A stretch of 64,000 bases of DNA, from positions 1 through 64,000 of the IMG/VR virus record IMGVR_UViG_3300047372_000605; one strand, written 5' to 3'. The DNA comes from a virus. Under the pieces are notes generated by a model. It did not search any database. It was not told where the DNA came from and saw only the letters and a list, made by a program, of their open reading frames with translations. Position 1 is the stretch's first letter. Each line of letters begins with the position of its first letter. Position numbers and translations under genes: made by a program. This document shows, piece after piece, positions 39,035-48,463 of the stretch.

Positions 39035-39822
39035 AAGTATCACATGAAGCACCAATTCCCTACATGAAACAAGTTAGGGGGTTAATTGATTATGACTATT
39101 GTTTACCACACTTGCTAGATGAAAGCGAAGAATATAAACAATATTTTCAAGAATCTAAAGAAATGCAACGTTATATTATTATGGATAATTCCTTACATGA
39201 ATTAGGAGAACCATATGATTCAGAACGCCTAGCCCATTGGTTATATTATTTTAAACCTGATGAATTTATAGTACCAGATTACTGGCAAGATAAAACAGCT
39301 ACATTAGTATCAGCTAAAGAATGGGTTAATAAAAAATATCCTGAAAATACAACCCCAGTAGCTGTAGTACAAGGTAAAAATGAAGGTGAAGCTAGAGAAT
39401 GTTATAGAATATTAAAATATCAAGGTTATGAAAAAATAGCATTTAGTTATGGTGCAGATTGGTATTATGGTAAGGGAAAAGAAACATCTAAAAATATAGA
39501 AAATATAACAGTAACAAAAGCTCATGGTAGATATAACTTTATAAAAGAATTATATGAAGAAGATACTATTAAAAAATCAGATAGAATACATTTATTAGGA
39601 TGCAATATTCCTCAAGAATTTAAATGGTATAAAAATATGCCATTTATTAAAACAATAGACACATCAAACCCAGTTATACATGGTTTATCAGGAATAAAAT
39701 ATGAGCCCTGGGGATTGGATAACAAAATATCTACTAAGGTAGATAAATTTAAAGGAGAAGCTGAACATTGGGAAACAGCAATTTATAACATACAATTATT
39801 TAAAACATTTATACCAACATGA
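39031..39822 (+). CDS. dpdA: DpdA-like DNA-guanine transglycosylase (TGT superfamily)
   Basis: This 263-residue protein resembles the short phage branch of the tRNA-guanine transglycosylase superfamily that inserts 7-deazaguanines into DNA. Readable signatures are YIIMDNSLHELGEP near residue 49 (the first catalytic Asp), EFIVPDYWQDKTATL near 87, VAVVQGKNEGEA near 112, and IHLLGCNIPQEF then IKTIDTSNPV near 190-212 (the probable nucleophile Asp). The zinc cysteine cluster of tRNA enzymes is absent. With QueC, QueD, QueE and FolE all nearby, it probably exchanges guanine in phage DNA for preQ0. Both ends overlap neighbours by four bases. Confidence 0.75.
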   Translation: MKVSHEAPIPYMKQVRGLIDYDYCLPHLLDESEEYKQYFQESKEMQRYIIMDNSLHELGEPYDSERLAHWLYYFKPDEFIVPDYWQDKTATLVSAKEWVNKKYPENTTPVAVVQGKNEGEARECYRILKYQGYEKIAFSYGADWYYGKGKETSKNIENITVTKAHGRYNFIKELYEEDTIKKSDRIHLLGCNIPQEFKWYKNMPFIKTIDTSNPVIHGLSGIKYEPWGLDNKISTKVDKFKGEAEHWETAIYNIQLFKTFIPT

Positions 39823-40688
39823 AACAAGCAGTATTAAGTTTAAGTGGTGGAATGGATAGCAGTACACTATTACTTCACCTATTAGCAAACGATTATAAAG
39901 TAACAGCTCTTAGTTTTGATTATGGTCAAAAACATAGAGTTGAATTAGAAAGAGCACAACAATTAGTAGATTACTTAAATAGTAAAGCAAGTGAAACTTT
40001 AGCTAAAAATGATTTAGGAGAAACTATTAAACATAATTTTGAGCCTATTACATATCAATCTATTAAATTAGACGGTTTAACATCACTATTAGATTCAGCT
40101 TTAGTAGAAGGTGGAGATGATGTTCCTGAAGGACATTATGAAGAAGATAATATGAAAGCAACAGTAGTGCCTAATAGAAATAAAATATTTTCATCACTAA
40201 TACAATCTGTAGCATTATCAATTGCTAACAAAACAGAATCAGCGGTAAAAATAGCAATGGGTATTCATGCTGGAGATCATGCAATTTATCCTGATTGTAG
40301 ACAAGAATTTAGAGATGCAGATTATAAAGCATTTTCGGAAGGTAACTGGGAAGCATCAAGGGTATCATTATACACACCATATTTAAATGGAGATAAATTT
40401 GATATTTTAAAAGATGGAGAAGTATGTTGTAAAGAATTAGGGATTGATTTTAATGAAGTATATAAAAGAACTAATACATCATATAAACCAACAGCTGAAG
40501 GATTATCAGATTATAAATCAGCATCTTCAGTAGAAAGGATAGAAGCATTTTTAAAACTAGGTAGAAAAGACCCTGTCATATATGTAGATGGTTGGGACAC
40601 AGCAAAATCTCATGTTGAAAAATTATTAGCCGATCATGCAAATAAGCCTAACATGAATGATACTATCGACATGGTAAATAATATGTAA
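39819..40688 (+). CDS. queC: 7-cyano-7-deazaguanine synthase QueC, zinc site replaced
   Basis: QueC converts carboxy-deazaguanine to preQ0 using ATP and ammonia. This 289-residue protein keeps the ATP loop LSLSGGMDSSTLLL near residue 7, SFDYGQKHRVELERA, TVVPNRNKIF and the HAGDHAIYPDCR region. The C-terminal zinc site, normally CX8CX2CX2C, is missing. The aligned residues are Tyr222, Asp231, Ser234 and Ser237 at exactly the same spacing, just before the conserved VERIEAF. The fold may be held in another way. The residues after it (about 250-289) are extra compared with cellular QueC. It overlaps the DpdA-like gene. Confidence 0.85.
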   Translation: MKQAVLSLSGGMDSSTLLLHLLANDYKVTALSFDYGQKHRVELERAQQLVDYLNSKASETLAKNDLGETIKHNFEPITYQSIKLDGLTSLLDSALVEGGDDVPEGHYEEDNMKATVVPNRNKIFSSLIQSVALSIANKTESAVKIAMGIHAGDHAIYPDCRQEFRDADYKAFSEGNWEASRVSLYTPYLNGDKFDILKDGEVCCKELGIDFNEVYKRTNTSYKPTAEGLSDYKSASSVERIEAFLKLGRKDPVIYVDGWDTAKSHVEKLLADHANKPNMNDTIDMVNNM

Positions 40689-40689
40689 T

Positions 40690-40845
40690 ATGAAGCAACC
40701 AGACGCAAAAAAGCATCAAGTAATAAGTTTTATAAAATCAGGAATTCGTATCTTAGGATATGGATTTCTTGTAATTAATTTGCCTATTGCAGTAATTTTA
40801 CTTATATTAAGTGAAGCAGTAGGAATAATAGAAGAATTAGTATAA
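40690..40845 (+). CDS. 51-residue membrane microprotein
   Basis: The reading frame runs from ATG 40690 to TAA 40843-40845 and fills the whole gap between queC and queD. The stop shares a base with the queD start (TAATG). The first 18 residues are basic and polar. Residues about 19-42 form one hydrophobic segment (ILGYGFLVINLPIAVILLIL), and the end is acidic (GIIEELV). It is a likely inner-membrane protein. The tight packing and the typical start suggest a real gene. Function is unknown. Confidence 0.65.
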   Translation: MKQPDAKKHQVISFIKSGIRILGYGFLVINLPIAVILLILSEAVGIIEELV

Positions 40846-41309
40846 TGGGAAAATTTCAATCAAGTAAAGTTTTTGACGGGTTTAGTACAGTGTTTCGTCA
40901 ATGGAAAGCTGAAGATACACACTGTAGGTTTTTACATGGGTATGGTATTTCATTTAAAGTATATTTTGAAGGTGAATTAGATGGTAGAAATTGGGTTTGG
41001 GATTTTGGAGGAATGAAAAGAGCCAAAACTAAAATTGATGGTAAATCTCCTAAAGAATGGTTTGATTTTATGTTTGACCATACTGTAATAATAGCAGAAG
41101 ATGACCCAGGAATGGGTGGTTGGGAAACAATGAATAAATTGGGAGTTATTCAATTAAGAGTTATTGAAGCAACAGGAGCAGAAAAATTTGCAGAGTTTAT
41201 CTTTAATAAAGTAAATGATTTTGTCCATGAAGAAACTGAAGGTAGAGTAAGAGTTACTAAGGTTAAATTTATGGAACATGGTAAAAATGCAGCTTACTAC
41301 TGTGAATAA
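40845..41309 (+). CDS. queD: 6-carboxytetrahydropterin synthase QueD-like protein with altered zinc site
   Basis: QueD makes carboxytetrahydropterin, the second step toward preQ0. In this 154-residue protein the active-site pattern is Cys27-x3-His31-Gly-Tyr33, where cellular enzymes have CxxxHGH. The first zinc His of the AAHR motif is replaced by Phe17. The catalytic Cys27, the Asp-His pair in MFDHTVI near residue 78 and the Glu in KFMEHGK remain. So only one of three zinc ligands is kept in the usual place. The length is normal. It may bind metal in a different way or be specialised. Confidence 0.72.
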
Positions 41310-41316
41310 AAAAATA

Positions 41317-41401
41317 GGAAAGATGGCAGAGCGGTCGAATGCGCTGGTCTTGAAAACCAGTTTACTGAAAAGTAACGGGGGTTCGAATCCCTCTCTTTCC
41401 G
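41317..41401 (+). tRNA. tRNA-Ser (TGA)
   Basis: GGAAAGA at 41317 pairs with TCTTTCC at 41394-41400. The anticodon arm is CTGGT-CTTGAAA-ACCAG with anticodon TGA. A long variable arm (TTACT/AGTAA) and the T-loop GTTCGAATC confirm a serine tRNA. There is no encoded CCA. Confidence 0.93.
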
Positions 41402-41408
41402 CAAAAAT

Positions 41409-41479
41409 TACCGGGTCGTCTAGTGGCAGGACATTTGGTTTTGGTCCAGAGAACGGAGGTTCGAATCCTTCCCCGGTAA
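41409..41479 (+). tRNA. tRNA-Gln (TTG)
   Basis: TACCGGG at 41409 pairs with CCCGGTA at 41472-41478. The anticodon loop reads TTTTGGT with anticodon TTG. The T-loop GTTCGAATC is present. It lies seven bases after the previous tRNA. Confidence 0.92.
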
Positions 41480-41488
41480 CTATTAAAT

Positions 41489-41565
<77 letters not shown>

Positions 41566-41579
41566 CTAAAATTAAATAA

Positions 41580-42350
41580 ATGAAAAGAATAGAAGATTAT
41601 AATAAAGTATTACCAGTTTTAGAAGTATATAGGTGTGTACAATCAGAAGGATCTAGATTTGGTAGACCTACAATAGCAGTTAGAACAACAGGTTGTACTC
41701 ACAGATGCTATTTTGGAGAAGGTGGTTGGTGTGATTCTTGGTATACAAGTATACATCCAGAAAAAGGTACATTTACATTTAATGATATTATTAAAATATA
41801 TGATGATAATCCTCATGTAAAAGAAATGATGTTAACAGGTGGTTCACCTACAATGCACCCTGCTTTAGTAAATGAAATAACACACTTTGCAAATGAAAGA
41901 AATATACTTGTTACAATTGAAACTGAAGGTTCTCATTTTCTTGAAACCGATTATCCCTTGGATCTTATTAGTCTTAGTCCTAAGTTTTCTAATTCAGTTC
42001 CTGTAATAGGAGCTATTACACCTAATGGAGCAGTAGCAGATGAAAGAATGATTAAAGTCCATAACAGACTTAGATTAAATAAAGAAGCTATAGGAAAAAC
42101 AATTGCATACCATAAAGACTATCATTTTAAACCAGTATGGGATGGCACAGATAAAAATTTAGAAGAAATAGAGGCATTTAGAGTTGAAATGGATATACCA
42201 AAGGACAAAACATTTATTATGCCAGCTGGAGATACTAGAGAAACACTAATAAAAATGTATCCTTTAGTATTTGAATTATGTGCTGAAAAAGGATATAATA
42301 TGACAGGTAGAGACCATATTATAGCATTTGATACAGAACGAGGTGTCTAA
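41580..42350 (+). CDS. queE: QueE-like radical SAM enzyme (7-carboxy-7-deazaguanine synthase) with unusual cluster spacing
   Basis: This 256-residue protein has the QueE opening EVYRCVQSEGSRFGRPTIAVR and the radical SAM cluster, but the cysteines are Cys39-x3-Cys43-x7-Cys51 and not the usual CX3CX2C. The loop that follows SAM's methionine part is TGGSP (Gly87-Gly88-Ser89), where most members have GGE. The later ISLSPKFSNS segment fits QueE. It makes carboxy-deazaguanine, the substrate of QueC. The start follows a tRNA by 14 bases with an A-rich leader. A GTG-started small ORF overlaps its end. Confidence 0.8.
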   Translation: MKRIEDYNKVLPVLEVYRCVQSEGSRFGRPTIAVRTTGCTHRCYFGEGGWCDSWYTSIHPEKGTFTFNDIIKIYDDNPHVKEMMLTGGSPTMHPALVNEITHFANERNILVTIETEGSHFLETDYPLDLISLSPKFSNSVPVIGAITPNGAVADERMIKVHNRLRLNKEAIGKTIAYHKDYHFKPVWDGTDKNLEEIEAFRVEMDIPKDKTFIMPAGDTRETLIKMYPLVFELCAEKGYNMTGRDHIIAFDTERGV

Positions 42351-42477
42351 GGAGGAAGCATTAGAAATATTAGAAGAAATAAAAGAAAACGTAAACGTTT
42401 GTTGTGCCATTACTATGGAACCAGACGAAGTATTAGATTTAATAGAAAAATTAGAAGAATATTTAAGAAATGAATAA
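42343..42477 (+). CDS. 44-residue acidic microprotein
   Basis: The GTG at 42343 overlaps the last codons of queE by eight bases, and the stop overlaps the next ATG by eight. The product is helical and acidic (SKEEALEILEEIKENVNVCC, then EPDEVLDLIEKLEEYLRNE). An in-frame GGAGG lies just inside. It fits exactly between the two genes, which supports it being real. Function is unknown. Confidence 0.5.
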   Translation: MSKEEALEILEEIKENVNVCCAITMEPDEVLDLIEKLEEYLRNE

Positions 42478-43045
42478 AATAAAAATAACATTAATTTTAA
42501 TACTTAGCAGTGTTTTAAATTATAGTCAAGTAATAAAAACTGACATATTTACAGTTAAATATTCTGAAGAATATCAACAACCAATTTGGTTAGAATATAC
42601 AATACAATGCCCAAACGGACACGCTGAAAGAACAGGTATGAATTTTTGGGTACCTAAAGGGGTAAAAACATCAGATGATGCAGATTATGTAGATAATATT
42701 TACGATAAAGGTCACTTAGCACCTGCGGCAGCATTTAACTGTGATAAAGAAACCCTACTTAAAACATTTTCATACTTAAACTCAGCTTTACAACATGAAG
42801 GACTAAACAGAGGACAATGGGCAAGACTAGAATCATTTGAAAGAAGTTTAGCTAATTTCTTTGATAAAGAAGTAAAAGTAAGAGTAGATGTCTTATTCGA
42901 AGGTAAATTAAAAAAGGTAAAAGGTGGAGCTACAATACCTAGTGGCTTTAGAAAAACAATAATAATGGGAGATATTAAAAAAATATTTGAATTTCCAAAC
43001 GCCGATACAAAAGGTACAAGTTGGATAGAATATCTCAAAAAATAA
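42470..43045 (+). CDS. Secreted DNA/RNA non-specific endonuclease (beta-beta-alpha-metal type)
   Basis: This 191-residue protein has a signal peptide of flavobacterial style at residues 1-20 (MNKIKITLILILSSVLNYSQ). The NUC motif DRGH appears as Asp79-Lys-Gly-His82 in DKGHLAPAAAF, with His82 the general base. The metal-binding Asn region LNSALQHEGLNRGQWARLE follows, with Asn104 and Asn113. It should degrade DNA and/or RNA in the periplasm or outside the cell, and so cannot attack phage DNA inside the cytoplasm. It might destroy DNA of competing phages at entry or release nutrients. Host origin by transfer is plausible. Confidence 0.78.
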   Translation: MNKIKITLILILSSVLNYSQVIKTDIFTVKYSEEYQQPIWLEYTIQCPNGHAERTGMNFWVPKGVKTSDDADYVDNIYDKGHLAPAAAFNCDKETLLKTFSYLNSALQHEGLNRGQWARLESFERSLANFFDKEVKVRVDVLFEGKLKKVKGGATIPSGFRKTIIMGDIKKIFEFPNADTKGTSWIEYLKK

Positions 43046-43051
43046 AAAATT

Positions 43052-43207
43052 ATGAAAGTAACAAATTTATGGAATAAACTTAGAATATTAAGTGGTAATA
43101 TTTTAGAAATTAAGATTAGGATAAGTAAATTTATAATATTAGATTTATTTGTAAGTACAAACAGATTTAAATTAATGATTTTAAATATTGGATTTGAAAG
43201 CAAGTAA
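43052..43207 (+). CDS. 51-residue basic hypothetical protein
   Basis: The frame runs from ATG 43052 to TAA 43205-43207. It overlaps the start of the next gene by about 20 bases. The product is rich in Leu, Ile, Lys and Asn (LWNKLRILSGNILEIKIR, then KFIILDLF), probably amphipathic. It fills the only gap between the nuclease and the lipoprotein. Start and reality are uncertain; function is unknown. Confidence 0.4.
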   Translation: MKVTNLWNKLRILSGNILEIKIRISKFIILDLFVSTNRFKLMILNIGFESK

Positions 43208-43763
43208 AATATTACTTATACTTTTAGTTTTAATAGGTTGCAATAAAGAAGATGAAGATGGTTATAGAGTTTATACTATAGATAGAGGTAACCATTACTC
43301 AGATGGCCCTATAGATAAATTATTTGGTAATAATAATAGAGCTGAATCATGGGAATGGGAAGTTATATTTGAACCATCTTGTATTTACTCAGAATCAGAT
43401 TTATTTAATCCCTCAAATTATTTAGACGTTAATAAATTAATAGGTTTTTCAGATTGTGACAGACACCATTCTCAATATTCATGTAGAATAGGTTGGAGAG
43501 CATCAGGTGATTCTATTGAATTACTAATATATAAGAGGGATGATAATAATATAGAATTTAAATCCCTTAAAAAAGTATACCCAGACCAAATAGTAAACGT
43601 TACTTTAGATTTTAAAGACACTATTTACACATCTTGTATAGATGGAACTTGTGATACGTTAATAAGACCTTGTCCAGATTGGTCAGGTAGAAAATATTCA
43701 CTGTTTCCATTCTTTGGTGGTCAAGAAACGGCACCACATAAAATGAAAATTAGAATAAAATGA
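43188..43763 (+). CDS. Surface-exposed lipoprotein
   Basis: A 191-residue protein if started at TTG 43188 (TTG 43194 is also possible). It has a short hydrophobic signal ending in the lipobox LVLIGC, so it is a lipoprotein. The residues after the lipidated Cys are Asn-Lys-Glu-Asp-Glu-Asp, matching the Cys-X-Lys-acidic-acidic signal that sends lipoproteins to the cell surface in flavobacteria. The mature part has several Cys (FSDCDRHHSQYSCRIGW, later YTSCIDGTCDTLIRPC) and looks beta-rich. A phage surface lipoprotein may block receptors against other phages. The family was not firmly identified. Confidence 0.68.
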   Translation: MDLKASKILLILLVLIGCNKEDEDGYRVYTIDRGNHYSDGPIDKLFGNNNRAESWEWEVIFEPSCIYSESDLFNPSNYLDVNKLIGFSDCDRHHSQYSCRIGWRASGDSIELLIYKRDDNNIEFKSLKKVYPDQIVNVTLDFKDTIYTSCIDGTCDTLIRPCPDWSGRKYSLFPFFGGQETAPHKMKIRIK

Positions 43764-44197
43764 AAAAATACAATGTAGATTGGGATGAAATAAAAGCTTT
43801 AGTATTCAGGCTATCCCATAAAATAATTACCAACGATTTAGAATTTAAAAACATATATGGTTTACAAAGAGGAGGTTTAATACCTGCAGTAATGTTATCT
43901 CACCAATTAGGAATACCTATGGCTAAAGGTGATATAGGACCTGACACTTTAATAGTAGACGATATTTGTGATAGTGGAGAAACACTAGATAATTTAGTAA
44001 AAAAATATCAAACATTATATTCTTACCCATTTAACCTTAAAACAGCAGTTTTACATTATAAACCTCATACTTCATGTTTTGAACCAACTTTATATGCCGA
44101 AAAATGGAATAAGGATGTTTGGTTAATATATCCTTGGGAAAAAGAAGATTCAGAAGCTATACAAGATTACAAAGTAAAAGTTGGAGAATTGCAATAA
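43760..44197 (+). CDS. Phosphoribosyltransferase
   Basis: This 145-residue protein has a type I PRTase fold, with IYGLQRGGLIPAVMLSHQL near residue 32 and the PRPP loop TLIVDDICDSGETL near 65, where the two Asp residues bind PRPP. The C-terminal YAEKWNKDVWLIYPWEKE resembles xanthine/hypoxanthine PRTases. It probably salvages a purine base, and could in principle act on a deazapurine given the neighbours, though that is speculation. It overlaps the lipoprotein gene by four bases. Confidence 0.8.
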   Translation: MKKYNVDWDEIKALVFRLSHKIITNDLEFKNIYGLQRGGLIPAVMLSHQLGIPMAKGDIGPDTLIVDDICDSGETLDNLVKKYQTLYSYPFNLKTAVLHYKPHTSCFEPTLYAEKWNKDVWLIYPWEKEDSEAIQDYKVKVGELQ

Positions 44198-44226: not shown

Positions 44227-44922
44227 ATGGAGAACAAACGAAGAAAAATACACGAGGAGTTAGAAGTAGTAAAAGAAGGTTTTGCAAACGGAGTTGCACC
44301 TGGTTTTCCACTCCCACAATCTGAAAAAGATAAGATGATAGATAAAGCAGAATTGGCGTATGGTCAATTTTTAGATGCTTTAAAATGTGATTGGAGAAAT
44401 GATCCAAATTCAATGGAAACACCTAGACGTGTAGCTAAAGCTTATGTTAATGATTTATGGGCGGGTAGATACACAGCAATGTCTCCTATTACATCTTTTC
44501 CTTCTGATGGTTATGATGGTATTATTATAGAAAGAAACATACCTTTAACATCAATGTGCTCTCATCATCATCAAACAATTGGAGGTGTAGTTCATATTGG
44601 TTATATAGCAGGAGAAGGTGGTCAAGTAATTGGGTTATCAAAACTAAACAGAATTGTAGAATTATTTGGTAGAAGAGGAGCAATACAAGAGCAACTAACC
44701 TCAGCAATTCATAATGCCGTATCTAAAATTACAGAAGGTAATAAAGGTGTTATAGTTACAATAGTAGGTACTCATAATTGTGTTAGTTGTAGAGGAGTAA
44801 AACATCAAGGAGCAGCCATGGTTACAACTAAAGCTTCAGGTGTGTTTAGAGAAAACGATAATTTAGCTAGAAAAGAATTTTTTGACAGCCTAAAGATTAA
44901 CAACGGAGGGCATAATATATAA
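44227..44922 (+). CDS. folE: GTP cyclohydrolase I (FolE), first step of preQ0 synthesis
   Basis: This 231-residue protein keeps the zinc and catalytic residues: Cys and His in TSMCSHHHQTIGG near residue 111, and Cys in GTHNCVSCRGVKHQGA near 188. The substrate-binding VIGLSKLNRIVELFGRR and IQEQLT segments are intact. It makes dihydroneopterin triphosphate, which QueD then uses. In contrast to QueC, QueD and QueE here its metal site is complete. It has its own host-type promoter and is followed by a MazG-like gene. Confidence 0.92.
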   Translation: MENKRRKIHEELEVVKEGFANGVAPGFPLPQSEKDKMIDKAELAYGQFLDALKCDWRNDPNSMETPRRVAKAYVNDLWAGRYTAMSPITSFPSDGYDGIIIERNIPLTSMCSHHHQTIGGVVHIGYIAGEGGQVIGLSKLNRIVELFGRRGAIQEQLTSAIHNAVSKITEGNKGVIVTIVGTHNCVSCRGVKHQGAAMVTTKASGVFRENDNLARKEFFDSLKINNGGHNI

Positions 44923-44925
44923 ACA

Positions 44926-45567
44926 ATGAGTAAACAAAGAACATTAAATGAGCTGAGACAAACTAAGGATGCACATTATATTCCAAAGTATGATCCTCAA
45001 ACAGGAGATAAAAATCCTCATTATAAAGAACTAACAGGTGAAGAACTTGAAGAGATGATGAATGAAACAGATGCACCTCCAGGAGTTCAATTTGTAAATG
45101 AAGTAGAAATATTTAATGCCACATTTGGTAAACCAAACAACTATGTCCCAACAATCCCAGAAAAGAAAGAAACAGATTTCGTCTACGACTTTTGTATCGA
45201 AGAAATCACAGAATATCAAGAAGCTTGCAAAAACGGAGACATCGTGGAAATTTTGGATGCTATTTGCGATATTGCTTATGTTACCTTGGGGAATGCCACT
45301 ATGTTACATGGCCTTAAAGATAAGATTTGGCCAGCGTATAAAGAAGTCCAGGCGTCAAATATGTCTAAGTCTTGCAAAACTGAAGAAGAAGCAGCACAAA
45401 CTGTCACTCAAAGAGCTAAGGAACAAGGTGAAGAATGCCATTTTGAAAAAGTAGGAGATAGATATGTTGTATACAGAACAAGAGACAGAAAGGTTATGAA
45501 ATCTATTAACTATTTTAGACCAGATTTAAAGCAGTTTTTCACTGAAGAGGAATTAAAAAATGTTTAA
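44926..45567 (+). CDS. MazG-like nucleotide pyrophosphohydrolase
   Basis: This 213-residue protein carries the MazG-type metal motif in residues about 88-115: FCIEEITEYQEACKNGD, then EILDAICDIAYVTLG. That is a Glu-Glu-x2-Glu helix and an Asp-x3-Asp helix. The IWPAYKEVQASNMSK segment after it is typical of phage members. It would hydrolyse (d)NTPs or abnormal nucleotides. The N-terminal 60 residues and the C-terminal 60 are extensions of unknown role. It overlaps the polymerase gene by eight bases. Confidence 0.8.
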   Translation: MSKQRTLNELRQTKDAHYIPKYDPQTGDKNPHYKELTGEELEEMMNETDAPPGVQFVNEVEIFNATFGKPNNYVPTIPEKKETDFVYDFCIEEITEYQEACKNGDIVEILDAICDIAYVTLGNATMLHGLKDKIWPAYKEVQASNMSKSCKTEEEAAQTVTQRAKEQGEECHFEKVGDRYVVYRTRDRKVMKSINYFRPDLKQFFTEEELKNV

Positions 45568-47236
45568 AAAAGCATTTGCACGAAGAATAGGAGGAAACAA
45601 ACATTTAATACATCTTTGGACTGACACAGGTTATGAGAAAGTTGAATGGACAAACTTTGCCTATAAAGAATGCAGTGAAGCAGATGCTGATTATATAGGT
45701 TTAAATGGCGAACCACTAAGAAAGACTAGTAAATGGGGTCCTGATGATTCAGGACTCCATTTTCATGACATGAAAGCATATCAAAAATTCTTAATTGAAA
45801 AATATGGTACTAATGATGAACCATCTACTACACACAGAGAATTATTTTTTGATATTGAAACTGAAATGGGTGATGCTTTAACACCTGAATACATTCAAAA
45901 TGCACCTAAAAAAGTTACATCTATAGCTTGGTATGATAAACAAGTAGATGAATGGGGTATATTAATTTTAGATACTAAAAACCAATTAGAACATACTAAA
46001 GCTAGAAACAAAGAAATTACACCTTGTAAAACCGAAAGTGATTTACTAGCTAAATTCTTAGAAAAATTTAGAGAAATCGATCCTGATATTATAATAGGAT
46101 ACAATAGTGATTATTTTGATATACCATACCTATACTACAGAATGTGTAATGTATTAGGTGAAGATTGGGCTAGACATTTATCTCCTATTGGTTATGTAAG
46201 AGAAACACCTTGGTTTAAAGACCAATATATTCAAATAGCAGGTGTTGAATCTCTTGATTACATGCGTTTACATAAAAAGTTTAGTTGGAAAGATGAACCA
46301 TCATGGAAATTAGATGCTATTGGAGAAAAATATGCAGGTATAAATAAAGTTGAATATGAAGGTAATTTAGATTCTTTATTTGAAAGTGACATAAATAAAT
46401 TCATCCAATATAACTTTGTTGATGTTGAAATACTAGTTGAATTAGATAAAAAATTAGAATATTTAGCTTTAACTAAAAATCTATCACATAAAGGTAAACA
46501 TAACTATAGTGAGGTATATGCTAATACAAATACCCAAGATGGTGCTATTTCGGCTTACTTATTATCCCAAAATATTATCCCACCTGCTAAAGACAAAGAC
46601 TTAAAAGCAGAAAAAGGATATGCTGGAGGTTATTTATTTTGCCCTAAAGCAGGAATATACAACTATATGTTTGATGAGGATTTAACTTCACTATATCCCT
46701 CAATTATTATGTCTCTTAATATAGGTAAAGAAACATTAAAAGCAAGAATCATAGATGCTGATGATAGAAATAATAGATTAGGATTAAATGATTTAAAAGC
46801 TAAAGACCCAGATAGTACTATTATTATTAAAAACCATAAAGGCAAACGAGCTGAAGTTACAATAGCTAACCTATTAAAATTTATAGAAGGAAATCAATTT
46901 ACTATATCAGCTAATGGTACTATGTTTGCTACAAATAGACAATCAGTACTATCAACTATACTAGCTAAATGGTTTGGTGAAAGAGTATTATATAAAGGTA
47001 AAATGAAAAAAGCATACCAAGCTAAAGATAAAGAAGCAGGAGCTAAATATCATTTACTACAATATACAATGAAAATTTTATTAAATAGTTTATATGGTGC
47101 AACAGCATTACCTAGTTTTAGATATGGTAATGTTAATTTATCAAAAGCTATAACACTTTCAGGACAAAGAATTATTCAAGAATCAGCTTTAATAGCAAAT
47201 AAAAAAATGAACGAGGAGATAAAAAATGTTAAGTAA
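45560..47236 (+). CDS. Family B DNA polymerase, N-terminal chain (T4 gp43-like, split)
   Basis: This 558-residue chain holds the 3'-5' exonuclease (ELFFDIETEMGD near residue 97, PDIIIGYNSDYFDIPYLY near 176, YNFVDVEILVELD near 290). It also holds the first half of the polymerase domain: motif A EDLTSLYPSIIMS near 375 and motif B MKILLNSLYGATA near 507. It stops just after the finger/palm helix (ANKKMNEEIKN), before motif C. The missing part is on the 47486 gene, in the same frame, 249 bases on. The two chains probably join to form the replicase. Confidence 0.9.
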   Translation: MFKKAFARRIGGNKHLIHLWTDTGYEKVEWTNFAYKECSEADADYIGLNGEPLRKTSKWGPDDSGLHFHDMKAYQKFLIEKYGTNDEPSTTHRELFFDIETEMGDALTPEYIQNAPKKVTSIAWYDKQVDEWGILILDTKNQLEHTKARNKEITPCKTESDLLAKFLEKFREIDPDIIIGYNSDYFDIPYLYYRMCNVLGEDWARHLSPIGYVRETPWFKDQYIQIAGVESLDYMRLHKKFSWKDEPSWKLDAIGEKYAGINKVEYEGNLDSLFESDINKFIQYNFVDVEILVELDKKLEYLALTKNLSHKGKHNYSEVYANTNTQDGAISAYLLSQNIIPPAKDKDLKAEKGYAGGYLFCPKAGIYNYMFDEDLTSLYPSIIMSLNIGKETLKARIIDADDRNNRLGLNDLKAKDPDSTIIIKNHKGKRAEVTIANLLKFIEGNQFTISANGTMFATNRQSVLSTILAKWFGERVLYKGKMKKAYQAKDKEAGAKYHLLQYTMKILLNSLYGATALPSFRYGNVNLSKAITLSGQRIIQESALIANKKMNEEIKNVK

Positions 47237-47489
47237 ACAATCCATAAGAAAAGAACACATTATACTTTTAAATAGAGTAAAAATGTCAAAAGATGAAATC
47301 ATAGAAATATCTAAAGATTTCACAGAACCTGAAGAACAACGATTTAGAAAAATATTACAACAAGGTGGTAAAATTTCTATTCAAGGTAAAAAATTTGAAA
47401 TAGTAAAAGATTTAAAAGACTATGCTAGAAATAGTAAAGGTGAATATGAAGCTCCAGCTAAACCTCATAGAAACGAAGACTGGGAATGA
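47226..47489 (+). CDS. 87-residue ORF inserted between the two polymerase chains
   Basis: The ORF is in the +1 frame relative to both polymerase pieces. Its start overlaps the first chain by 11 bases and its stop overlaps the next ATG (ATGA). The product is Lys/Glu-rich (SKDEIIEISKDFTEPEEQ, then LQQGGKISIQGKKFEIVKD). No intein, homing endonuclease or other family was recognised. It may be a remnant of a mobile gene or a small subunit that bridges the two chains. Both overlaps suggest coupled translation. Confidence 0.6.
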   Translation: MLSKQSIRKEHIILLNRVKMSKDEIIEISKDFTEPEEQRFRKILQQGGKISIQGKKFEIVKDLKDYARNSKGEYEAPAKPHRNEDWE

Positions 47490-48463
47490 AGCATTTAGAA
47501 GACACACCATGGTGGATATGTGATCCTGAAGATACTAACTATTGTGCTTATGTAGACACAGATAGTAATTATTTTCATGCTGAACCTTTATTAAGACATA
47601 GATTTCCTAATTTTGATGGAATGTCTGATAAGGAAAAGGATACTGAACTAGAAAAAATTGCCCTAGAATATCAAGATATTATTACAGACCATTACAATAA
47701 TGTAGCTAAGGACGTTTTTAATATAAATCAATTTGAATGGTTTGATAAGCCACATTGGTTAGAAATGAAAACTGAATGTGTAATAAGATCAGCTTATTTT
47801 AGAGCAACTAGAAGGTATGCACAATGGATCACTAAACAAGAAGGTGTTGAAAAAGAAACACTTGATATTAAAGGTTTAGAGTTCCAAAAATCTAATTTTC
47901 CACCTATACTAGGTAAATTCTTTAATGATGTTTTAGTAGACGTTTTAAAAGGTGAAACACAAGATGATATAGATGCTAGAGTAAAAACATTTAAAAAGCA
48001 AGTATTAGATGGAACCATACCATTAACAGATTTAGGTAACCCAACATCAGTAAAACAAATAGGTAAACATCAAGGCAAACCAGCCAGAAAAGGAGAAATG
48101 TTATCAACATTTAATCATGTAGAAAATAAAGTAGGCAGAAAATTAGGTGCACCTGCAGCAGTAAAAGCAGCTATTAGATATAACGATTTACTTAGATTTT
48201 GGAAATTAGATAGCAAATACGAATTAATTACCAATGGTACTAAAATAAAATGGATTTATCTTAAAAATAACCCATATCAAATTGAAGAAATAGCATTTCT
48301 AGATTATGATATGCCAGAAAAAATTCGTACATTCATTGAGCAGTATGCTGATAGAAAAAAAGTATTTGAAAGTATTTTATTAAATAAATTAGAGGGATTC
48401 TATGGTGATTTAGAATGGAACTTAAACTTAAACCCCTACATTAATCAATTTTTTGACTTATGA
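47486..48463 (+). CDS. Family B DNA polymerase, C-terminal chain (T4 gp43-like, split)
   Basis: This 325-residue chain begins shortly before motif C, YCAYVDTDSNYFH near residue 18, whose two Asp residues complete the active site. Residues about 100-140 carry the thumb-side pattern (TECVIRSAYFRATRRYAQWI, then ETLDIKGLEFQKSNFPP). The rest is the thumb. It must act with the 45560 chain. Its stop overlaps the clamp gene by four bases. The C-terminus (NLNPYINQFFDL) may bind the clamp. Confidence 0.9.
   Translation: MKHLEDTPWWICDPEDTNYCAYVDTDSNYFHAEPLLRHRFPNFDGMSDKEKDTELEKIALEYQDIITDHYNNVAKDVFNINQFEWFDKPHWLEMKTECVIRSAYFRATRRYAQWITKQEGVEKETLDIKGLEFQKSNFPPILGKFFNDVLVDVLKGETQDDIDARVKTFKKQVLDGTIPLTDLGNPTSVKQIGKHQGKPARKGEMLSTFNHVENKVGRKLGAPAAVKAAIRYNDLLRFWKLDSKYELITNGTKIKWIYLKNNPYQIEEIAFLDYDMPEKIRTFIEQYADRKKVFESILLNKLEGFYGDLEWNLNLNPYINQFFDL

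What the first reader, a model, noticed from the sequence alone, without database searches (positions are those of the whole stretch)
42470..43763. Secreted nuclease plus surface lipoprotein: a possible exclusion module
Seen: a signal peptide and DKGH nuclease motif, then a small basic ORF, then a lipoprotein with Cys-Asn-Lys-Glu-Asp after the lipobox. Known: in flavobacteria Lys-acidic-acidic after the Cys directs lipoproteins to the cell surface, and phage lipoproteins can block receptors. Inference: during infection the cell exports a nuclease and covers a receptor, protecting against other phages. The pair sits inside the DNA-modification cluster.
Basis: partly seen in the sequence, partly recalled or inferred. 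Interest (0 to 1): 0.7.

Follow-up and report, generated by a model that had tools for sequence, protein, structure and literature searches.

The report
Phage-exported nuclease beside a lyase-like lipoprotein
A virus of marine Bacteroidota-type bacteria carries two neighbouring genes for exported proteins, a DNA-cutting enzyme that hundreds of related viruses also carry and a surface-type lipoprotein shaped like a sugar-polymer-cutting enzyme; they look like two independent add-on genes rather than one purpose-built 'keep other viruses out' module.

Summary
ORF 42470-43045 is an exported EndoG/NucA-type nuclease (PF01223, E=3e-25; model Z 19-24 to EndoG, NucA and Serratia nuclease; DKGH, N113, E121 kept). 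ORF 43188-43763 is a lipoprotein starting C-NKEDE, a textbook surface-export signal. They are the only two clear signal-peptide proteins in the window and sit among QueC, QueD, QueE, FolE and DpdA-like genes. The nuclease is a common phage gene: a viral scan found 386 related stretches, and the 80 kept form 47 clusters. None of 30 nuclease records searched has the lipoprotein, which is absent from the closest relative (91% identity). Secreted genes are not enriched beside the nuclease. Thirteen nuclease-bearing records of 83-349 kb carry no FolE, so the nuclease does not depend on deazaguanine DNA. The lipoprotein belongs to an unnamed family of Bacteroidota chromosomes and phages, predicted to be a jelly roll closest to PL14/PL36 alginate lyases with the catalytic lysine kept throughout, pointing to polysaccharide binding or cleavage rather than a receptor plug. 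Best reading: a periplasmic DNA-degrading nuclease, plus a separately acquired surface carbohydrate-active lipoprotein.

The parts
42470..43045 (+). exported EndoG/NucA-type DNA/RNA non-specific endonuclease, 191 aa
   Evidence: PF01223 E=3e-25; AF2 pLDDT 90.3, Z 19-24 to EndoG, NucA, Serratia nuclease; 386 related viral stretches
42470..42526 (+). signal peptide, cleavage inferred S19^Q20
   Evidence: sequence; signal-like N-terminus in 78 of 80 viral relatives, the other two lacking a complete N-terminus
42704..42715 (+). DKGH catalytic motif (general base H82)
   Evidence: aligned to Serratia DRGH; D79, G81, H82 invariant in 38 phage homologues
42803..42832 (+). LNRGQWARLE: metal ligand N113 and E121
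   Evidence: aligned to Serratia LNQGAWARLE; N113, R114, E121 invariant
43052..43207 (+). small basic ORF, 51 aa, function unknown
   Evidence: 90% identical in L005, dN/dS 0.15; absent from L006-L017 next to the nuclease
43188..43763 (+). lipoprotein, 191 aa, PL14/PL36-like beta-jelly-roll; gene inserted between the 51-aa ORF and the phosphoribosyltransferase
   Evidence: AF2 pLDDT 85.6; Z 12.8 to vAL-1 (PL14), 12.7 to Aly36B (PL36); hhalign 88.7% to PL14/PL36, control 0.3%; absent from L005
43239..43256 (+). lipobox cysteine and export motif C-N-K-E-D-E
   Evidence: fits C-X-K-(D/E)2-X (PMC5080379); strict motif only in window and L018, Lys at +3 in all 12 phage entries listed
43434..43436 (+). 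K83, counterpart of catalytic K143 of Aly36B
   Evidence: aligned; invariant in 21 of 21; K143 located from the K143A mutant sequences
43479..43499 (+). S98-x-R100-x-G-W-R104 motif, aligned with S-x-R-x-x-W of PL14
43530..43532 (+). Y115, counterpart of the PL14/PL36 active-site tyrosine
   Evidence: aligned; replaced by Phe in L048-L054
39031..39822 (+). DpdA-like (phrog_19058)
   Evidence: 37% to immuto DpdA
39819..40688 (+). QueC-like
   Evidence: TIGR00364 E=1e-35, below curated cut-off
40845..41309 (+). QueD
   Evidence: PF01242, phrog_2389
41580..42350 (+). QueE
   Evidence: TIGR03365 E=1e-14, below curated cut-off; homologous to annotated QueE of immuto and phiST
42328..42477 (+). 49-aa ORF between QueE and nuclease
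   Evidence: 90% in L006, dN/dS 0.09
43760..44197 (+). phosphoribosyltransferase
   Evidence: PF00156, phrog_8995
44227..44922 (+). FolE
   Evidence: TIGR00063 E=2e-40

Best explanation
Two independent exported accessory proteins, not one module. (a) The nuclease is a phage-lineage member of the EndoG/NucA superfamily. The signal peptide takes it across the inner membrane (shown by sequence; in a few relatives a lipobox would tether it to the membrane), and the DKGH/N/E site cuts DNA and RNA non-specifically in the periplasm (inferred from family chemistry). The most likely benefit is degradation of DNA that reaches the periplasm of an already infected cell, chiefly superinfecting genomes, while the producer's own genome stays safe in the cytoplasm or capsid through compartmentation, not base modification. 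(b) The lipoprotein is a later insertion. It is anchored in the outer membrane and, by its C-NKEDE motif, probably flipped to the surface. There its PL14/PL36-like jelly roll binds or cleaves an acidic polysaccharide of the host's slime or capsule, changing the cell coat for adsorption or release. Shown: sequence features, folds by prediction, conservation, independent distribution. Inferred: enzyme activities, location and benefit.
For: Nuclease: PF01223, model Z 19-24 to EndoG, NucA and Serratia nuclease, catalytic residues invariant in 38 diverse phage homologues, signal-like N-terminus in 78 of 80, lipobox variants L100, L108, L114, L119, L121 that would keep the enzyme on the envelope, dN/dS 0.13, 386 related viral stretches. 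Compartmentation rather than modification: no FolE in 13 nuclease-bearing records of 83-349 kb. Lipoprotein: lipobox and strict export motif, fold, profile match with catalytic Lys and Tyr aligned (control), K83 in 21 of 21, purifying selection, home family in Chitinophagaceae. Independence.
Against: No activity, localisation or expression data exist. Exclusion is not distinguished by sequence from lysate or slime DNA clearance or from nucleotide scavenging. The nuclease's neighbours vary widely (que cluster, ribonucleotide reductase, thymidylate synthase, lysis genes, tail genes), which does not single out one role. For the lipoprotein, Y115 is Phe in the L048-L054 clade, so at least some members may bind without cutting; a shared jelly roll does not prove lyase activity. 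Pfam gives no PL14 match.
Confidence: 0.42

Rival explanations
1. The nuclease acts at and after lysis. Accumulated in the periplasm, it is released with the progeny and digests host DNA and extracellular DNA, thinning the lysate or biofilm so that virions spread; with the lyase-like lipoprotein this would be slime clearing.
For: In the clade of L091-L116 the nuclease lies directly downstream of holin-like and lysis-region genes, and in L122, L126, L131, L133 beside an amidase gene on the opposite strand. A PL14-like fold suits slime.
Against: In the window group it lies in the DNA-metabolism region; the lipobox variants would not be released; the lipoprotein does not accompany it elsewhere.
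Confidence: 0.25
2. The nuclease scavenges nucleotides: it breaks environmental or periplasmic nucleic acid into nucleotides that the cell imports for phage DNA synthesis in phosphorus-poor water.
For: Neighbours include ribonucleotide reductase (L118; immuto), thymidylate synthase (L157), dihydrofolate reductase-like (L134) and the que/FolE/phosphoribosyltransferase/MazG genes.
Against: No nucleotidase or transporter was seen beside it; flavobacterial cells often have their own PF01223-type enzymes (69 of 149 genomes).
Confidence: 0.18
3. First reader's module: the nuclease spares deazaguanine-containing virion DNA and the lipoprotein covers a receptor, together excluding other phages.
For: Adjacency in this one genome; nuclease within 10 kb of deazaguanine genes in about 20 of 47 clusters in three different arrangements; strict surface-export motif.
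Against: The pair occurs only here; the nuclease is common in records without FolE; the deazaguanine phages phiST and phi19:2 gave no nuclease match; the lipoprotein fold is lyase-like and it has chromosomal relatives.
Confidence: 0.07
4. The lipoprotein is a non-catalytic surface lectin or masking protein that blocks adsorption of other phages to a polysaccharide receptor.
For: Jelly-roll fold also common in lectins; Y115 lost in one phage clade; surface-export motif.
Against: K83, S98, R100 and the PYFGG end are conserved across 21 sequences including bacterial ones, more than a mask would need.
Confidence: 0.25

Closest known systems
Endonuclease_NS superfamily: Serratia marcescens nuclease, Anabaena NucA, mitochondrial EndoG/EXOG
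   Same: Fold (Z 19-24), catalytic His, metal-ligand Asn and Glu, export signal as in Serratia nuclease and NucA (recalled)
   Different: Phage-encoded, single 170-residue domain, DKGH instead of DRGH in 79 of 80, forms its own family (cell homologues score at most 83 bits)
phrog_14168 (phage nuclease)
   Same: E=3.7e-11 over most of the length
   Different: Exported location and breadth in Bacteroidota phages are not stated in the family's record
PL14 / PL36 alginate lyases (vAL-1, AkAly30, Aly36B)
   Same: Jelly-roll fold (Z 12-13), GKLPG-like Lys motif, S-x-R-x-x-W motif, Tyr
   Different: Shorter, lipid-anchored, no Pfam PL14 match, Y115 lost in one clade, activity untested
T5 Llp / T1 Cor exclusion lipoproteins
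   Same: Phage-encoded lipoprotein
   Different: Llp is small and acts on FhuA from the periplasmic face (PMC9586334); this one is 191 aa with an enzyme-like domain and a surface-export motif
Deazaguanine phages (Flavobacterium phage immuto, Cellulophaga phage phiST)
   Same: QueD-QueE-FolE block 71-73% identical at DNA level
   Different: immuto's nuclease lies 20 kb from its que cluster; phiST gave no nuclease match

Membership tests
Endonuclease_NS / EndoG-NucA nuclease | PF01223 profile above its curated cut-off | tested here: met
   89.6 bits against cut-off 23
Endonuclease_NS / EndoG-NucA nuclease | D-R/K-G-H motif with catalytic His, plus metal-ligand Asn and Glu | tested here: met
Endonuclease_NS / EndoG-NucA nuclease | beta-beta-alpha-metal fold | tested here: met
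   predicted model only, Z 19-24
Endonuclease_NS / EndoG-NucA nuclease | Mg-dependent non-specific DNase/RNase activity | not testable with these tools
   needs purified protein
Flavobacterial surface lipoprotein (export-signal carrying) | lipobox Cys followed by X-K-(D/E)2 | tested here: met
   C-N-K-E-D-E
Flavobacterial surface lipoprotein (export-signal carrying) | surface exposure | not testable with these tools
   needs labelling
Polysaccharide lyase family 14/36 | jelly-roll fold of this family | tested here: met
   AF2 model; top two families by Z, but PL7 and PL28 within about 1 Z unit
Polysaccharide lyase family 14/36 | catalytic Lys in G-K-L/V motif | tested here: met
   K83 aligned, 21 of 21
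Polysaccharide lyase family 14/36 | active-site Tyr | tested here: inconclusive
   Y115 in the window, Phe in L048-L054
Polysaccharide lyase family 14/36 | Pfam Polysacc_lyase_14 (PF21294) score above cut-off | tested here: not met
   no PF21294 match for any of 21 members at E up to 1; so not filed as PL14
Llp/Cor-type exclusion lipoprotein | small periplasmic-facing lipoprotein encoded beside the receptor-binding protein | tested here: not met
   191 aa, surface-export motif, beside que genes
Two-gene exclusion module | co-occurrence of the two genes in related phages | tested here: not met
   0 of 30; 0 of 5 reciprocal

The most novel reading that the evidence does not exclude
A large, unrecognised phage strategy in Bacteroidota: phages export a broad-spectrum nuclease (soluble or lipid-anchored) into the periplasm of the infected cell as an 'outer' immune barrier that shreds any incoming phage DNA regardless of its modification; some lineages add a surface-displayed uronate lyase-like lipoprotein that strips the adsorption polysaccharide.
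Probability: 0.25. Interest if true: 0.8.

Novelty: new variant of a known kind. Interest (0 to 1): 0.5.

Why it matters
A nuclease family with hundreds of viral relatives, nearly always exported, is an overlooked common accessory gene of Bacteroidota phages, and its role can be tested with isolates such as Flavobacterium phage immuto. If it destroys superinfecting DNA, it would be a phage-encoded periplasmic immunity that works by compartment rather than by marking self DNA. The lipoprotein family has no Pfam, NCBIfam or PDB match; the predicted lyase-like fold with a conserved catalytic lysine gives a concrete hypothesis for phages remodelling the host's polysaccharide coat from outside during infection.

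Tried and rejected
Sequence search of the lipoprotein against Pfam, NCBIfam, PHROGs and PDB gave nothing usable; only the fold and profile comparison did. PADLOC found no known defence protein. The idea that exported genes gather around the nuclease was tested and rejected: 5/240 genes within three positions against 33/484 further away, if anything fewer. The idea that the 51-aa ORF is an obligatory inhibitor (like NuiA of NucA) was rejected because it occurs in one other cluster only. Promoter and terminator scans were uninformative for a Bacteroidota-type sigma factor. Literature searches found no paper describing a phage-exported PF01223 nuclease in flavophages and none held on T4/endonuclease I exclusion, so that precedent stays a memory. 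PF21294 searches in 148 and 198 genomes served only to obtain PL14-type sequences.

Full report
What is there. The window is part of a 92,958-base IMG/VR virus record, 30.8% G+C, whose closest isolates over this region are Flavobacterium and Cellulophaga phages. At 42470-43045 lies a 191-residue protein with an N-terminal signal peptide ending in the Bacteroidota-type xSQ and a PF01223 domain at E=3e-25. Its DKGH and LNRGQWARLE motifs align with DRGH and LNQGAWARLE of Serratia nuclease. An AlphaFold2 model (pLDDT 90.3) superposes on mouse EndoG, Anabaena NucA and Serratia nuclease with Z 23.6, 20.7 and 19.4. A 51-codon basic ORF (43052-43207) follows, then a lipoprotein (43188-43763) with lipobox LVLIG-C and mature N-terminus C-N-K-E-D-E. 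This fits the C-X-K-(D/E)2-X signal shown to drive surface display in Capnocytophaga canimorsus (PMC5080379). In F. johnsoniae the consensus was SDDFE, so the motif is strong but not universal. These two are the only clear exported proteins in the window by a crude scan, and all three ORFs show purifying selection (dN/dS 0.13-0.19). The neighbours are QueC, QueD, QueE, FolE, a phosphoribosyltransferase and a DpdA-like protein.

The pair is not a conserved module. In the nearest relative, L005 (nuclease 91% identical), the same gene order is present without the lipoprotein: the 51-aa ORF runs straight into the phosphoribosyltransferase, and the two DNA sequences align up to exactly that junction. 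The lipoprotein gene therefore looks like a clean insertion in the window's lineage, using a TTG start inside the end of the 51-aa ORF. A profile of the lipoprotein family finds nothing in 30 further nuclease-bearing phage records, while the same profile rings in records known to carry it. The five lipoprotein-bearing phage records tested have no PF01223. These records may be fragments, so single absences are weak, but the pattern is consistent. Across the 47 nuclease clusters, exported proteins are not enriched next to the nuclease.

The nuclease is a common phage gene. An alignment-based scan of IMG/VR matched 386 related stretches, and the 80 best fall into 47 clusters at 90% identity. All 80 keep D-K/R-G-H, and 78 show a signal-like N-terminus, the two exceptions lacking a complete N-terminus. 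A few (L114, L119, L121, more loosely L100, L108) have a lipobox instead and would be membrane-tethered. Flavobacteriia genomes carry more distant homologues in 69 of 149 cases, at most 83 bits, mostly longer proteins, so the phage genes form their own lineage. Invariant residues in 38 diverse phage members include D79, G81, H82, N113, R114 and E121.

Link with DNA modification. About 20 of 47 clusters have que, FolE or DpdA genes within 10 kb, in three arrangements: QueE-nuclease-(phosphoribosyltransferase)-FolE; DpdA-kinase-nuclease-QueF; and lysis region-nuclease-DpdA-QueC (QueF by Pfam). Yet 13 nuclease-bearing records of 83-349 kb have no FolE anywhere, and immuto's nuclease is 20 kb from its que genes. 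Conversely, the deazaguanine phages phiST and phi19:2 gave no nuclease match. The nuclease therefore does not depend on deazaguanine modification, and the proposal that it spares modified virion DNA is not needed: a periplasmic enzyme is kept from the cytoplasmic phage genome by the membrane. Caveat: a phage without FolE could use host precursors, and only FolE was searched across whole records.

What the lipoprotein is. Relatives occur in Chitinophagaceae and Roseivirga chromosomes and in 13 viral loci, including phages (L045-L047) where it also lies just downstream of QueE. The window protein, L018 and L045-L047 form one phage clade (99/99 support). No Pfam, NCBIfam or PDB sequence match exists. 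The model (pLDDT 85.6) is a jelly roll whose best matches are vAL-1 (PL14, Z 12.8) and Aly36B (PL36, Z 12.7), followed by PL14 AkAly30, PL7 and PL28 lyases. Profile-profile comparison with four PL14/PL36 sequences gives 88.7% probability, against 0.3% for the nuclease profile as control. It places invariant K83 on the GGK lysine and Y115 on the YAY tyrosine. In Aly36B that lysine is K143: the K143A mutant sequences differ from wild type at this position, and the enzyme's reference title names lysine as both catalytic base and acid (cited in PMC8618178). K83 is kept in 21 of 21 family members; Y115 is Phe in the L048-L054 clade. The protein is therefore PL14/PL36-like, but it is not filed as PL14 because the Pfam model does not recognise it. 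The strict K-(D/E)2 signal is found only in the window and L018, while Lys at +3 is general.

Mechanism. The best-supported reading keeps the two proteins apart. The nuclease is exported and most likely attacks DNA that enters the periplasm of the infected cell. Degradation of superinfecting T4 DNA by the host's periplasmic endonuclease I is a precedent recalled from memory and not found in the held papers. Rivals are DNA clearance at lysis and nucleotide scavenging; gene contexts exist that fit each, so exclusion is only the leading option. The lipoprotein is most likely surface-exposed and acts on, or binds, an acidic host polysaccharide. T5 Llp, the best known exclusion lipoprotein, is periplasmic and jams FhuA (PMC9586334); nothing here resembles it beyond being a phage lipoprotein.

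Verdict. Observation confirmed; interpretation partly supported. The nuclease is a new, widespread phage branch of a known nuclease kind. The lipoprotein is an undescribed family with a lyase-like fold. The joint exclusion module is unlikely (about 7%).

Noticed in passing
window 45560-48463: Family B DNA polymerase is split into two ORFs (45560-47236 and 47486-48463) with an unrelated 87-aa ORF between them; the same split is in L005.
   Followed up: partly
window 41317-41566: Three tRNA genes (Ser-TGA, Gln-TTG, Ala-TGC) lie between QueD and QueE.
   Followed up: no
L003:4533-7428 (Flavobacterium phage immuto): After its nuclease, immuto encodes three exported proteins: a C-type lectin, an unknown, and a cohesin protein with a Por_Secre_tail type IX secretion sorting domain, unusual for a phage.
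   Followed up: partly
L009:5562-6473 and equivalents in L012-L017: A QueF (preQ0 reductase) gene directly follows the nuclease, suggesting a preQ1-type DNA modification in those phages.
   Followed up: partly
L100, L108, L114, L119, L121: A subgroup of the phage nucleases carries a lipobox instead of a plain signal peptide, so the nuclease itself may be a lipoprotein.
   Followed up: partly
L004:639-1139 and L021:2914-3372: Homologues of the lipoprotein domain without signal peptide occur in a 636-kb phage and in Pseudanabaena phage Pan5, in the latter a few genes downstream of a heparin-lyase-like gene.
   Followed up: no
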